A DNA stretch of 64,000 nucleotides from contig NZ_MBPN01000002.1 in the NCBI RefSeq assembly GCF_001695625.1, positions 1 through 64,000 on the forward strand, in the 5' to 3' direction. Positions 59,718 through 64,000 of this stretch are shown one piece after another. Position numbers and translations under genes: made by a program. Each line of letters begins with the position of its first letter. Positions within the stretch are counted from its first letter, which is position 1. The stretch comes from Pseudomonas defluvii. GTDB lineage: Bacteria; Pseudomonadota; Gammaproteobacteria; Pseudomonadales; Pseudomonadaceae. Under the pieces are notes generated by a model that was not told the origin of the DNA, searched no databases, and worked only from the letters and a program-made list of their open reading frames with translations.

Positions 59718-60818
59718 CTACTGGCTGACCTGATAGCGTTCCAGCCAATGGGCGTAGGGCGTGGGCAGCACCCAGGAAGGGCGTTCTACCTGCAGTTGCA
59801 GTGCCGCCTGGTAAGGCCAATTGGGGTTGGCCAGGTGAGCGCGGCCCACCATCACCAGATCCATCTGCCCCTCGGCCAGGGTAGCTTGCGCGATTGCCGG
59901 GCTGTCGATGCCCCACGCAGCAGCCACCGGCAGTTCCGCTTCACGACGCACGCGCTCGGCAATCGGCGCAAGGAACGCTGGCCCCCATGGAATAGAGACG
60001 TCCGGCACAGTGAAACCCACGCTGACACTGAGCAGGTCCAGCCCACCCCGGCGAAATGCCTTGGCCAGCTCGATGGACTCTTCCAGCGTCGCCTCGTCGC
60101 GACCGTCATATTCAATGACACCGAAACGCGCGGTCAGCGGCAGGTGCTCCGGCCAGACCTCTCGCACCTGCGCCAGGGTTTCAAGCAGGAAGCGGCTACG
60201 GTTTTCAAAGCTGCCACCGTAGGCATCATCGCGCTGGTTGCTATGGCTGGAAAAGAAGCTCTGGCCCAGGTAACCATGAGCAAAATGCAGCTCCAGCCAC
60301 TCAAAACCGGCCGCCAGGGCACGGCGTGCCGCCGCCACGAAGTCCGCGCGAACACGGGCAATGTCTTCGAGGGTCATGGCCTTTGGGGTTTTCGGCAGAT
60401 GAGTACCGAAAGGAATCGCCGAGGGTGCGAGGGTGTCCCAACCACGGGCATCCTCTTCGCCAATGTGATCGTCGCCTTCCCACGGACGGTTGGCACTGGC
60501 CTTGCGACCGGCATGAGCGATCTGAATACCCGGTACGGCACCGGCGCGCTTGATCGCAGAGGCGACCTCAGCCAACGCGTCGGCCTGGGCATCGTTCCAG
60601 ATGCCGGCACAACCCGGGGTAATGCGCCCTTCCGGTGAAACAGCGGTGGCCTCGACAATGACCAGGCCGGCACCACCACGCGCAAGGCTGGTGTAGTGCG
60701 CCAGGTGCCAGTCATTGATCAAGCCGTCAGTGGCGGTGTATTGGCACATCGGCGGCACGGCAATGCGGTTGCGCAAGGTCACGCCCTTGAGCTGGAACGG
60801 GGTAAAGAGTGCGGACAT
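59718..60818 (-). CDS. xenA: Old yellow enzyme family ene-reductase, XenA-like
   Basis: A 366-residue FMN enzyme starting MSALFTPFQLKGVTLRNRIAVPPMCQY. It has HAGRKAS, FEWLELHFAHGYLGQSFFS and GRAHLANPNWPY, with the active-site Cys25 typical of XenA. Nearly the whole length is recognisably XenA of P. putida, an NADPH-dependent reductase of xenobiotic nitro compounds, nitrate esters and enones. Cytoplasmic. It is the first gene before the ABM protein on the same strand. Confidence 0.94.
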   Translation of the reverse strand: MSALFTPFQLKGVTLRNRIAVPPMCQYTATDGLINDWHLAHYTSLARGGAGLVIVEATAVSPEGRITPGCAGIWNDAQADALAEVASAIKRAGAVPGIQIAHAGRKASANRPWEGDDHIGEEDARGWDTLAPSAIPFGTHLPKTPKAMTLEDIARVRADFVAAARRALAAGFEWLELHFAHGYLGQSFFSSHSNQRDDAYGGSFENRSRFLLETLAQVREVWPEHLPLTARFGVIEYDGRDEATLEESIELAKAFRRGGLDLLSVSVGFTVPDVSIPWGPAFLAPIAERVRREAELPVAAAWGIDSPAIAQATLAEGQMDLVMVGRAHLANPNWPYQAALQLQVERPSWVLPTPYAHWLERYQVSQ

Positions 60819-60898: not shown

Positions 60899-61573
60899 TT
60901 AGAGCAGCTTGAGCAAGGCGTGGGCGGTGGCATCGGAGGACGCTGGGTTCTGCCCGGTTACAAGCAGGCCGTCGACGACCACATGGCTGTGCCAGTCCTC
61001 GGCACGGCTGTACACCCCACCATGGCCTTTGAGCATGTCTTCAACCAGAAAAGGCACCACATCCGTCAAGTTGACAGCCGCTTCTTCGGTGTTACTGAAA
61101 CCCGTCACCTGCTTGCCCTTGACCAAAGGCGCACCGTTGGCATCCACAGTGTGGCGCAGCACCGCCGGAGCGTGGCAGACCGCACCAACGGGCTTGCCCA
61201 GTGCCTGGAAACGTTCAATCAGGGCGATCGAGCGCGGGTCTTCAGCAAGGTCCCAGAGCGGACCATGACCACCGGGGTAAAACAGTGCATCGAAATCATC
61301 GGCGTTGACCTGAGCCAAGGTCAGGGTGCTGGCCAGGGCCTTGCGTGCAGCCTCATCGGCCTGGAAGCGTTCAGTGGCGGCAGTCTGCGCGCCAGGATCG
61401 TCGCTCTTGGGGTCGATCGGCGGCTGGCCGCCCTTGGGCGAGGCCAGGGTGACCTGCGCCCCAGCATCGAGAAATGCGTAGTAAGGGGCTGCGAACTCTT
61501 CCAGCCAGAAGCCGGTCTTGTGGCCTGTATTACCCAGGGTGTCGTGGGACGTGAGCACCATCAAAATGTTCAT
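60899..61573 (-). CDS. DJ-1/PfpI family protein (type 1 glutamine amidotransferase-like, Hsp31-like)
   Basis: A 224-residue protein with the DJ-1/PfpI fold: MVLTSHDTLGNTGHKTGFWLEE, EEFAAPYYAFLDAGAQVTLASPKGG, YPGGHGPLWDLA, the nucleophile in VGAVCHAPAVL and the late EDWHSHVVVDGLLVTGQNPAS. This matches the Hsp31-like class-I glyoxalase III/chaperone group. It probably detoxifies reactive carbonyls. Two inverted repeats lie 70-115 bases upstream (61644-61688). Confidence 0.93.
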   Translation of the reverse strand: MNILMVLTSHDTLGNTGHKTGFWLEEFAAPYYAFLDAGAQVTLASPKGGQPPIDPKSDDPGAQTAATERFQADEAARKALASTLTLAQVNADDFDALFYPGGHGPLWDLAEDPRSIALIERFQALGKPVGAVCHAPAVLRHTVDANGAPLVKGKQVTGFSNTEEAAVNLTDVVPFLVEDMLKGHGGVYSRAEDWHSHVVVDGLLVTGQNPASSDATAHALLKLL

Positions 61574-61705: not shown

Positions 61706-62458
61706 CTACAGGGCGGTGCCCAGTACCTGGCGCAACTGCGCGCCACGCGCATCGGCAACGTCACTGATCAATGCATAGTTATAGTCACCGCGAGACCAGT
61801 AGCGCGCTTGCAGTTCGCCCTCGGTGCGCTCACCACTGGGCATCCGCACATAACGCTCACTGGGAGAGCGCAGGAAAAGGCTGACACGCTCACCGTTTCG
61901 GTCCTGGAACAGCAGCAGCGCGGCCGGGCCCTGCTCATTGCTCAGCAACCGTGCCCCTACCGGAGTAAACCCATAGGCCGAGAGGTCCGGCAGATTGCCG
62001 GCATGCCTGAAGTGCTGGCCCAACCAGGCCTGCAGTTGCTCTGGGGTGTTTACCGACAAGTCCAGTGAGGATGCATAGGCGAACAGCCGGTGCGCCTGCA
62101 CGGCGTCGGCCATCGGCGGGTTGCCAGCCATCAGATTGACCTCCCGCGCCTGCCAGCCACCCAGCCCCCCTACGCCCAACGCGACCAGCAGCATCGCAGC
62201 ACTGGCCCAGCGGCGCTGGCGACGCTGACGCAGGTCGCGGCGAACCCAGGCCGGGTCGAGGCGCGGGTTAGGCGCCTGTTCGATTTGCCCTGCCAGGGCA
62301 GCACGCAAACGCCGGGCATCGGCACGCCAGGCATCAAGCTCGGCGGCCCGCTGCGGATGTGCCGCCAGGTACCTGTCTACCTCACGTCGACGTTCGGGCA
62401 GCAACCGATCATCGACGTAAGCCTGTAATTCCTCTTCGGATGGGATCAACCGACTCAT
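61706..62458 (-). CDS. Transmembrane anti-sigma factor
   Basis: A 250-residue protein. The N-terminal ~70 residues (PSEEELQAYVDDRLLPERRREVDRYLAAHPQRAAEL) are a cytoplasmic anti-sigma domain of the ZAS-like kind lacking a HxxxCxxC motif; one membrane segment follows (~88-105, AAMLLVALGVGGLGG). The periplasmic rest (PVGARLLSNEQGPAALLLFQDRNG) resembles anti-sigma sensors of ECF pairs. Its start overlaps the sigma stop by four bases (ATGA). It should hold the sigma factor inactive until an envelope or oxidative signal. Confidence 0.9.
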   Translation of the reverse strand: MSRLIPSEEELQAYVDDRLLPERRREVDRYLAAHPQRAAELDAWRADARRLRAALAGQIEQAPNPRLDPAWVRRDLRQRRQRRWASAAMLLVALGVGGLGGWQAREVNLMAGNPPMADAVQAHRLFAYASSLDLSVNTPEQLQAWLGQHFRHAGNLPDLSAYGFTPVGARLLSNEQGPAALLLFQDRNGERVSLFLRSPSERYVRMPSGERTEGELQARYWSRGDYNYALISDVADARGAQLRQVLGTAL

Positions 62459-62964
62459 TTCAACCTCCGCAACCCAGGGGGCAACGGCGTGCCCTCGGTC
62501 AGTTCTCGCAGTGCTGCACGGGCCCGCGACAAGCGCGACATCACCGTGCCAATCGGTACATCCAGGGCCTGCGCGGCCTCCTTGTAGCTCATGCCTTCAA
62601 CACTCACCATCATCAACAAGGCGCGCTGCTCAGCCGAAAGCCTGGCAAAGGCAGCCAGACCGGACTGAGCCTCGACAATATCCTCGGTATTGTTCCCGAC
62701 CTCTTCGGCCCGCCCGAACCAGCTCAGCCAGCGCATATGGCGGCGCTCTCGACGCTTGCTGTCGAGAAACTGCCGGTAAAGGATCGAGAACAGCCAGGCA
62801 CGCAAACTCGCAGGATCACGCTGCTGCGCGCCCCGGCTCAATGCTCGCTCCACCGTCGCCTGCACCAGGTCGTCGGCGCTCGTGCCCTCGCGGGTCAACC
62901 ACAAGGCGAAACGGCGCAACCGCTGAAGCATCTCGCGTAGTTGGTCGTCATCCAGTTCGTTCAT
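62455..62964 (-). CDS. ECF sigma factor
   Basis: A 169-residue sigma-70 family ECF factor starting MNELDDDQLREMLQRLRRFAL. Region 2 is seen in SADDLVQATVERAL and LRAWLFSILYRQFLDSKRR; region 4 in ARLSAEQRALLMMVSVEGMSYKEAAQALDVPIGTVMSRLSRARAAL. It is the first gene of an operon with its anti-sigma factor. Its likely promoter, and that of the divergent catalase-like gene, share the same ECF motif pair (63005-63029 and 63038-63062), so it probably drives both. Confidence 0.93.
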   Translation of the reverse strand: MNELDDDQLREMLQRLRRFALWLTREGTSADDLVQATVERALSRGAQQRDPASLRAWLFSILYRQFLDSKRRERRHMRWLSWFGRAEEVGNNTEDIVEAQSGLAAFARLSAEQRALLMMVSVEGMSYKEAAQALDVPIGTVMSRLSRARAALRELTEGTPLPPGLRRLK

Positions 62965-63004
62965 CGAGTGATCCGTGATCTTCGTGCAGTCAGTGTACGA
63001 GGCA

Positions 63005-63062
63005 GACGGCCGACCGCGAATTTTATTCCAGGCCACTGGAATAAAACTTCAGCGGGTGCGTC
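63005..63062. promoter_or_regulatory. Two-way ECF promoter: GGAAT-N16-CGTC on both strands
   Basis: Rightward: GGAAT at 63038-63042, 16 bases, CGTC at 63059-63062, 33 bases before the peroxidase ATG. Leftward: GGAAT (ATTCC at 63025-63029), 16 bases, CGTC (GACG at 63005-63008), about 40 bases before the sigma ATG. The two -35 boxes face away from each other within the palindrome at 63021-63045 (TTTATTCCA ... TGGAATAAA). Identical boxes and spacing strongly suggest one ECF sigma reads both. Confidence 0.88.
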
Positions 63063-63094
63063 GTACCCGCTCATTTACTGACCTGGATAGCCCC

Positions 63095-64000
63095 ATGAGC
63101 ACTCCACTAAACGGTCGCGCCCGTACACTACGCCTGGCTGCCATCGGCCTAGGCGTCGCTGCACTGGGCGCAGGCTTTGCCTTCACCGCCGGCTGGATCG
63201 GCCCGGACCGGCTGACCCCGAAACGTATCGTCGACACCTTCGAAGCTCAGGCCGGGCACTACCCTGGCTACCGGAAAAACCACGCCAAAGGCCTGTGCGT
63301 CAGCGGCTACTTTGAAAGCAGCGGCCAGGCCGCCGAACTCTCAAGCGCTCGGGTGTTTGCCCAGCCAAGGGTACCGGTTATTGGCCGCTTCGCCATCGGC
63401 GGCGCCAACCCGCATAGCGCCGATGCCAGCGTCGCCACTCGCAGCCTGGCCGTGGAATTCACCACTGATGATGGACAACGCTGGCGCAGTGGCATGAATA
63501 CCCCGCCGGTACTGGCAGTGAACACCATCGAGGGTTTCTACGAACAGGTGCTGGCAATGACCCCGGTACCTGCCACCGGTAAACCCGACCCGGCAAGGTT
63601 GCAGGCCTTCTTTGCCGCACACCCGGAAAGCGCGGCCTTCCGCCAGTGGGTCAAGGGCTACACGCCCTCCGACAGCTTTGCCAGTTCGGCTTACCACAGC
63701 ATCAACGCCTTTCGCCTGATCGACGCCAAGGGCACCCCGCATTACGTGCGCTGGAAACTACAGCCACTGACCCCGTTCAGTGCATTACCGGCCCAGGTGG
63801 AAGACCCGAATTACCTGCAGAATGACCTGCGCAAACGCCTGACCGAAGGCCCCTTGCGCTGGAACCTGCTGTTGACCCTGGCCGAGCCGGGCGATGCAGT
63901 CGACGATCCCGCTCAACCCTGGCCTGAGCAACGGCTGCAAGTCAACGCGGGCACCGTGGTCATTGAGCAGGTCGATGCGGCCGAGCAAGGCGCCTGCCGT
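63095..64000 (+). CDS. Catalase-related peroxidase (SrpA-like), right end beyond the window
   Basis: Open from the ATG at 63095 to the window edge (about 302 codons). An N-terminal membrane anchor or signal (LRLAAIGLGVAALGAGFAFTAGW) precedes a catalase-family heme domain: HAKGLCVSGYFESS holds the distal His, RVFAQPRVPVIGRFAIGGANPHSAD, and SAYHSINAFRLID are the small catalase-like signs of SrpA-type periplasmic peroxidases. It is divergent from an ECF sigma/anti-sigma operon and has the same ECF promoter motif, so it is a likely target of that sigma factor. It is incomplete at the C-terminus. Confidence 0.9.
   Translation, partial: MSTPLNGRARTLRLAAIGLGVAALGAGFAFTAGWIGPDRLTPKRIVDTFEAQAGHYPGYRKNHAKGLCVSGYFESSGQAAELSSARVFAQPRVPVIGRFAIGGANPHSADASVATRSLAVEFTTDDGQRWRSGMNTPPVLAVNTIEGFYEQVLAMTPVPATGKPDPARLQAFFAAHPESAAFRQWVKGYTPSDSFASSAYHSINAFRLIDAKGTPHYVRWKLQPLTPFSALPAQVEDPNYLQNDLRKRLTEGPLRWNLLLTLAEPGDAVDDPAQPWPEQRLQVNAGTVVIEQVDAAEQGACR

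What the first reader, a model, noticed from the sequence alone, without database searches (positions are those of the whole stretch)
63005..63062. Mirror-image ECF promoter shared by a sigma operon and a catalase-like peroxidase
Both strands carry GGAAT-N16-CGTC with identical spacing, and the two -35 boxes form a palindrome. The sigma factor therefore probably activates itself and the divergent peroxidase from one 58-base element. Such a compact symmetric layout gives a direct prediction of the sigma factor's target sequence.
Basis: partly seen in the sequence, partly recalled or inferred. Interest (0 to 1): 0.7.

Follow-up and report, generated by a model that had tools for sequence, protein, structure and literature searches.

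The report
Self-activating sigma switch for envelope peroxidase
A Pseudomonas stress-response switch appears to turn on both itself and a neighbouring peroxide-handling enzyme through two matching, separately movable promoters; the promoter type was already known, but the wiring is unusually well conserved.

Summary
In detail: GGAATA-N15-CGTC occurs twice in the window, at 63005-63029 (-) and 63038-63062 (+); 0 of 100 shuffles gave two. The core interpretation, an autoregulated ECF sigma factor also driving a divergent catalase-domain peroxidase, is strongly supported comparatively. The sigma gene was found in 108 of 149 Pseudomonas genomes. The site precedes 108 of 108; the mirrored site accompanies 95 of 95 adjacent divergent peroxidases (93 N16, 2 N17) and 0 of 13 sigma genes lacking one. 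Peroxidases that lie elsewhere keep their own site, 10 of 10. Genomes with the sigma gene average 2.54 GGAATAA-N14-CGTC sites, those without 0.71, backward controls equal. Corrections: the palindrome is not the functional unit (the -35 boxes lie 7 to 205 bp apart), and GGAAT-N16-CGTC alone does not list the regulon (26 genome hits, 26 in the backward control). The motif equals the published ECF26 consensus (PMC6527743, passages). A new member of a known kind. Transcript starts and sigma dependence were not testable.

The parts
63005..63029 (-). Predicted ECF promoter of the sigma/anti-sigma operon: -35 GGAATA (63024-63029), -10 CGTC (63005-63008), N16 between GGAAT and CGTC
   Evidence: the same site at the same spacing in 108 of 108 sigma loci from 149 Pseudomonas genomes
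63038..63062 (+). Predicted ECF promoter of the peroxidase/cytochrome b561 operon: -35 GGAATA (63038-63043), -10 CGTC (63059-63062)
   Evidence: 95 of 95 adjacent divergent peroxidases (93 N16, 2 N17) and 10 of 10 lying elsewhere
62455..62964 (-). ECF sigma factor, 169 aa (Sigma70_r2 and r4_2), ATG at 62964; probable ECF26, possibly 'PrtI-like'
61706..62458 (-). Anti-sigma factor, 250 aa; by inspection one hydrophobic segment and no cysteine; its ATG overlaps the sigma stop codon
   Evidence: weak NCBIfam anti-sigma match below cut-off; no Pfam match; same order in relatives
63095..64000 (+). Catalase-domain (PF00199) peroxidase, 348 aa, N-terminal hydrophobic segment by inspection; runs past the window end to contig position 64141 and overlaps a cytochrome b561 gene (contig 64138-64659, 173 aa)

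Best explanation
This is the control region of a self-contained ECF (probably ECF26) stress switch. The sigma factor is held by a membrane-spanning anti-sigma factor. When an envelope signal, probably an oxidant or its consequences, releases it, the holoenzyme starts transcription from two separate promoters of the same sequence (GGAATA-N15-CGTC) that point apart. One makes more sigma and anti-sigma; the other makes a periplasm-facing catalase-family heme peroxidase plus a cytochrome b561 that could feed it electrons from quinol. In this genome these two promoters are probably the whole, or nearly the whole, regulon. Shown: the sequences, their fixed spacing, their conservation, their co-occurrence with the sigma gene and their presence at peroxidase genes that lie elsewhere. 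Inferred: sigma dependence, transcript starts, the signal, export of the peroxidase and the electron route.
For: Sigma-side site in 108 of 108 sigma loci, from 149 Pseudomonas genomes searched at E <= 1e-40. Mirrored site at 95 of 95 adjacent divergent peroxidases: 93 N16 and 2 N17; 0 of 13 loci without one. 10 of 10 peroxidases lying elsewhere have their own site, one of them (G146) on another contig; 0 of 6 second, weaker peroxidase matches have one. All 105 genomes with the peroxidase at E <= 1e-40 also have the sigma gene. GGAATAA-N14-CGTC sites: mean 2.54 in 108 sigma+ genomes, 0.71 in 41 sigma- genomes; backward control 1.69 and 1.68. Named records: of 80 loci, 51 have an adjacent divergent peroxidase and 51 of 51 carry both sites (CGTC or CGTT, N16 or N17), in Pseudomonas, Burkholderia, Xanthomonas and relatives, Nevskia, Gluconobacter and Acetobacter; in 2 of 2 Enterobacterales loci where the genes run one way there is one site, upstream of the peroxidase. 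Published ECF26 consensus: -35 GGAAT, -10 CGTC (PMC6527743, passages) or -35 GGAATA, -10 GT (PMC6180224, passages). In B. cenocepacia the divergent catalase and sigma genes BCAL3477 and BCAL3478 rise together after H2O2: qPCR 1.7/6.5/23.1 and NS/5.5/16.6 at 15/30/60 min (PMC2830190, passages).
Against: No transcript start or sigma deletion is known for this organism. BCAL3477/3478 were not aligned to the window; the link rests on gene order and on 7 of 7 Burkholderia loci here with this layout. The authors of PMC2830190 argue that the late rise means the catalase does not itself remove exogenous H2O2 and is triggered indirectly; neither gene responded to NaOCl. In Starkeya novella the ECF26 gene sigE lacks the consensus at its own promoter, so autoregulation is not universal in ECF26. 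Single sites also arise without this sigma factor: 21 of 41 sigma- genomes have at least one, and 'sigma-' means only no match at E <= 1e-40. Three sigma+ genomes (G063, G085, G113) have no peroxidase match, so the peroxidase is not the only possible output. Among 27 named loci without an adjacent peroxidase, most of them more distant sigma factors, only 8 have a sigma-side site.
Confidence: 0.9

Rival explanations
1. The palindrome TTATTCC-N8-GGAATAA is an operator for a dimeric transcription factor rather than two -35 boxes.
For: 11-nt perfect inverted repeat at 63021-63046.
Against: The gap between half-sites is 7 to 205 bp, with 31, 94 and 205 bp in three loci close to the window's (L029, L031, L020). 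Single half-sites with a -10 at fixed spacing stand upstream of 10 of 10 peroxidases lying elsewhere. CGTC at N16 accompanies GGAATA in 108 of 108 sigma-side sites and in 93 of 95 peroxidase-side sites, N17 in the other 2.
Confidence: 0.03
2. The promoters are real but read by another ECF sigma factor of the cell (or by several), not by the adjacent one.
For: ECF26 factors can cross-talk: S. meliloti RpoE1, RpoE4 and RpoE6 (not RpoE3) fire a heterologous ECF26 promoter (PMC10880074, passages).
Against: Site number depends on presence of this sigma gene (2.54 versus 0.71 per genome, equal controls), and all 105 genomes with the peroxidase also carry it.
Confidence: 0.06
3. In the compact layout (7-9 bp between -35 boxes) two polymerases cannot sit on the element together, so the promoters compete and the geometry sets the ratio of regulator to enzyme.
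For: 23 of the 93 loci with both N16 sites have a 7-9 bp gap. Steric overlap is inferred from general knowledge of RNA polymerase footprints.
Against: 51 of 93 have a 28 bp gap and the other 19 lie between 27 and 205 bp; the geometry is not conserved, so competition cannot be essential.
Confidence: 0.15

Closest known systems
ECF26 sigma factors of Sinorhizobium meliloti and Starkeya novella (RpoE1, RpoE4, SigE; sulfite response)
   Same: Promoter consensus -35 GGAAT, -10 CGTC upstream of sorT, sorA and rpoE4 (PMC6527743, passages); downstream membrane anti-sigma, RpoE1 activates its own operon, and rpoE6 is expressed divergently from a serine protease gene (PMC6180224, passages).
   Different: Targets there are sulfite oxidation genes or a serine protease; here a catalase-family peroxidase plus cytochrome b561. 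S. novella sigE lacks the consensus at its own promoter. Signal unknown here.
Burkholderia cenocepacia BCAL3478 (EcfB, 'PrtI-like') with divergent BCAL3477 'putative catalase'
   Same: Same divergent sigma/catalase layout; both genes rise together after H2O2 (PMC2830190, passages).
   Different: No promoter for this pair is named in the passages seen; not aligned to the window here.
PrtI/PrtR of P. fluorescens LS107d2 and WH6
   Same: ECF sigma gene followed by a transmembrane anti-sigma-like gene (PMC2997014, PMC8067088, passages).
   Different: Known by effects on secreted protease and germination-arrest factor; no peroxidase target mentioned in the passages seen; sequence identity to the window pair not tested.
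Catalase-related protein of PDB 3e4w
   Same: Best solved relative, E 4.4e-44, with the HAKG motif and the C-terminal tyrosine region aligned.
   Different: The alignment starts at residue 40, after the N-terminal hydrophobic segment of the window protein; the window protein is paired with cytochrome b561.

Membership tests
ECF26 sigma factor system | ECF architecture: sigma-70 regions 2 and 4 only | tested here: met
   Pfam Sigma70_r2, r4, r4_2 in a 169-aa protein
ECF26 sigma factor system | Target promoters -35 GGAAT(A), -10 CGTC or GT | tested here: met
   Sequence of 108 of 108 own promoters against the published consensus; promoter activity not tested
ECF26 sigma factor system | Downstream anti-sigma with anti-sigma domain, one membrane span and periplasmic C-terminus | tested here: inconclusive
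   Gene order met; one hydrophobic segment by inspection; no Pfam match and NCBIfam anti-sigma match below cut-off (31.8 of 100 bits)
ECF26 sigma factor system | Sequence closer to ECF26 members than to other ECF groups | tested here: inconclusive
   On S. meliloti pSymA the only match (41%, 81.7 bits) is taken to be RpoE6; the best of four on pSymB has 38%, 73.4 bits. Margin small; gene names recalled, the records carry no annotation; chromosomal ECF26 factors not compared
ECF26 sigma factor system | Match to the ECF26 profile of the ECF classification | not testable with these tools
   ECF classification profiles not held
PrtI/PrtR | Orthology to P. fluorescens LS107d2 prtI-prtR | not tested
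   Reference sequence not in hand; the link is the label 'PrtI-like' of BCAL3478 (PMC2194791, passage)
Catalase-family heme peroxidase | Catalase domain with distal His and proximal Tyr motifs | tested here: met
   PF00199 at 85 bits; alignment to 3e4w covers HAKG and the C-terminal Tyr region; residue roles recalled from catalases in general
Catalase-family heme peroxidase | Peroxidase activity | not testable with these tools
   needs assay

The most novel reading that the evidence does not exclude
This sigma/anti-sigma pair is the PrtI/PrtR system of Pseudomonas, known since 2000 by effects on secreted protease and later on secondary metabolites, and its direct regulon is only itself plus an envelope peroxidase-cytochrome b561 pair (with a few lineage-specific extras such as a secreted alpha/beta hydrolase and DUF2790 proteins). 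The protease and metabolite phenotypes would then be indirect consequences of envelope redox control.
Probability: 0.4. Interest if true: 0.55.

Novelty: new member of a known kind. Interest (0 to 1): 0.4.

Why it matters
It gives a concrete target sequence, and a probable four-gene regulon in this genome, for an ECF sigma factor found in 108 of 149 Pseudomonas genomes. Natural rearrangements (peroxidase genes elsewhere, single operons, loci without the peroxidase) provide ready-made controls that the promoters belong to this sigma factor. If it is PrtI/PrtR, it proposes a direct target for a regulator known mainly through phenotypes.

Tried and rejected
Chance was rejected by shuffles and by conservation. 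A dyad operator was rejected by variable gaps and by lone promoters at peroxidases lying elsewhere. Helical phasing of the gap was considered from the gap lists, without a test, and not pursued: values such as 13, 25, 31, 35 and 44 fit no single phase by eye. P. syringae PSPTO_1043 was looked at as a candidate relative (PMC5507510, passages) and set aside: its promoters (TGATCC...CGTA) and its RpoE/ChrR type differ.

Regulon search beyond the locus: the place list was capped, and I chose 32 non-locus sites in other genomes by hand from it (12, 20). Of the 20, 13 lie in ORFs of at least 150 codons. A recurrent site with similar flanks (L122-L124, L130, L157), next to an AraC-like gene (by eye), overlaps an ORF in 5 of 5 and was left unexplained.

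Literature: ten searches of the held open library, judged from listings and from passages of the papers opened, showed no paper describing this promoter pair with the peroxidase in Pseudomonas. PMC8786180 was seen as a listing only. PMC4235733 (passage) notes a catalase-like protein and a cytochrome b561 in a P. syringae region without naming a sigma factor. Most subscription papers are not held; Okrent 2014 was not.

Full report
Observation. The two sites are present exactly as described. On the minus strand 63029-63005 reads GGAATAAAATTCGCGGTCGGCCGTC; on the plus strand 63038-63062 reads GGAATAAAACTTCAGCGGGTGCGTC. Both have 16 bases between GGAAT and CGTC. The pair spans 58 bp, and the -35 boxes sit in a perfect 11-nt inverted repeat. 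For GGAATA-N15-CGTC the window holds 2 matches where 0.05 are expected, and 0 of 100 shuffles have two. In the whole genome of 5.65 Mb the patterns are not specific by number alone: GGAAT-N16-CGTC 26 against 26 backward, GGAATA-N15-CGTC 5 exact, GGAATAA-N14-CGTC 2 against 4 backward. The argument below therefore rests on position and conservation.

Genes. To the left, on the minus strand, lie an ECF sigma factor (62455-62964, 169 aa) and an anti-sigma factor (61706-62458, 250 aa, overlapping the sigma stop codon; by inspection one hydrophobic segment and no cysteine). To the right lie a catalase-domain protein (ATG 63095, 348 aa, ending outside the window at contig position 64141) and a cytochrome b561 (contig 64138-64659). 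The best solved relative of the peroxidase is 3e4w; the HAKG motif and the C-terminal tyrosine region align. 32 bases lie between the plus-strand CGTC and the peroxidase ATG, and 40 between the minus-strand CGTC and the sigma ATG, which suits short leaders.

Comparative test in Pseudomonas. The sigma gene was found in 108 of 149 genomes at E <= 1e-40, the peroxidase in 105 of 149 at the same limit, all 105 of them among the 108. Upstream regions of all 108 sigma genes were read: 30 loci, one, 77. GGAATA-N15-CGTC is upstream of the sigma gene in 108 of 108; GGAATA and CGTC are invariant while most bases between them vary. The peroxidase is adjacent and divergent in 95. 93 of these have the mirrored site with N16 and the other two have it with N17 (L213, L257). 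Of the 13 sigma genes without an adjacent peroxidase, 0 have a mirrored exact site. In one of them, G113, a DUF2790 gene takes its place behind a GGAATAAA site with CGTA in place of CGTC (L038).

Natural rearrangements. In 10 of those 13 genomes the peroxidase lies elsewhere, a few kilobases away or, in G146, on another contig; 10 of 10 have their own site 76-118 bases before the start of the matched protein. The other three (G063, G085, G113) have no peroxidase match. Six second, weaker peroxidase matches have no site (0 of 6). Sigma+ genomes average 2.54 GGAATAA-N14-CGTC sites, with 0 of 108 lacking one; sigma- genomes average 0.71, with 20 of 41 lacking one. The backward pattern gives 1.69 and 1.68. 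The excess of about 1.8 sites per genome fits a regulon of essentially two promoters; genome relatedness was not corrected for. In the window's own genome the three further GGAATA sites lie in ORFs of at least 324 codons.

Named records. 51 have an adjacent divergent peroxidase, and 51 of 51 have both sites (N16 or N17 after GGAAT, CGTC or CGTT), including Burkholderia, Xanthomonas, Lysobacter, Dyella, Frateuria, Nevskia, Gluconobacter and Acetobacter records. Two Enterobacterales loci (L068, L078; the anti-sigma gene of L068 is cut by the contig end) have the genes in one direction and one site, upstream of the peroxidase, with CGTT. Of 27 loci without an adjacent peroxidase, most of them more distant sigma factors, 8 have a sigma-side site and 1 a mirrored one.

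The palindrome. In the 93 loci with both N16 sites the gap between the -35 boxes is 7-9 bp in 23, 28 bp in 51, and between 27 and 205 bp in the other 19. In L020 inverted repeats that look like REP elements lie between the promoters (by eye). So these are two independent promoters; the compact mirror image here is one spacing among several, not a mechanism.

Accessory targets. Among hand-picked non-locus sites, a secreted alpha/beta hydrolase stood out: the site precedes it in 5 of 7 close orthologues (G085, the query, and G068, G044, G141, G070); G023 and G020 lack it. Of 30 loci returned for 41 matches, 13 more distant relatives had none and 10 were not located by the script. Two unlinked DUF2790 genes (G005; G070 contig 20) also follow a site; DUF2790 is a large family there (2 to 13 matches in each of 20 genomes) and the rest were not examined. 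These are leads, not tests.

Literature. [quoted passage not shown] novella sigE lacks it at its own promoter (PMC6527743, passages); another gives -35 GGAATA, -10 GT across species (PMC6180224, passages). In B. cenocepacia J2315 BCAL3478 (sigma) and its divergent neighbour BCAL3477 (putative catalase) have highly similar expression after H2O2, and neither changed with NaOCl (PMC2830190, passages). The authors think the late rise means indirect triggering and no role in direct H2O2 removal; to my reading this suits an envelope sensor better than a peroxide sensor. BCAL3478 is labelled PrtI-like (PMC2194791, passage). PrtI/PrtR is tied in print to secreted protease and germination-arrest factor (PMC2997014, PMC8067088, PMC11358695, passages). 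Identity of the window pair with PrtI/PrtR is inference.

Verdict. Confirmed observation, supported core interpretation, two amendments, a known kind of system. What remains is ordinary bench proof.

Noticed in passing
L162-L166 (G085, G068, G044, G141, G070): A secreted alpha/beta hydrolase has the same GGAATAA-N14-CGTC site upstream in 5 of 7 close orthologues, suggesting an accessory regulon member.
   Followed up: partly
L125 (G005), L159 (G070), L038 (G113): DUF2790 genes follow a GGAATAA-type site; in G113 a DUF2790 gene stands where the peroxidase would be, with CGTA as -10.
   Followed up: partly
window 62989-63001 and 63070-63082: ACTGA occurs 10 nt after the sigma-side CGTC in 20 of 26 close loci (L010-L035) and 14-16 nt after the peroxidase-side CGTC in 17 of 26; possibly a start-site or leader feature.
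   Followed up: partly
L020 (G127), between the two promoters: Inverted repeats that look like REP elements lie between the two promoters, 205 bp apart, without loss of either (by eye).
   Followed up: no
window 60899-61573 and 59718-60818, minus strand: A DJ-1/PfpI-family gene and a gene resembling an old-yellow-enzyme oxidoreductase (by eye) follow the anti-sigma gene on the same strand; whether they are co-transcribed is unknown.
   Followed up: no
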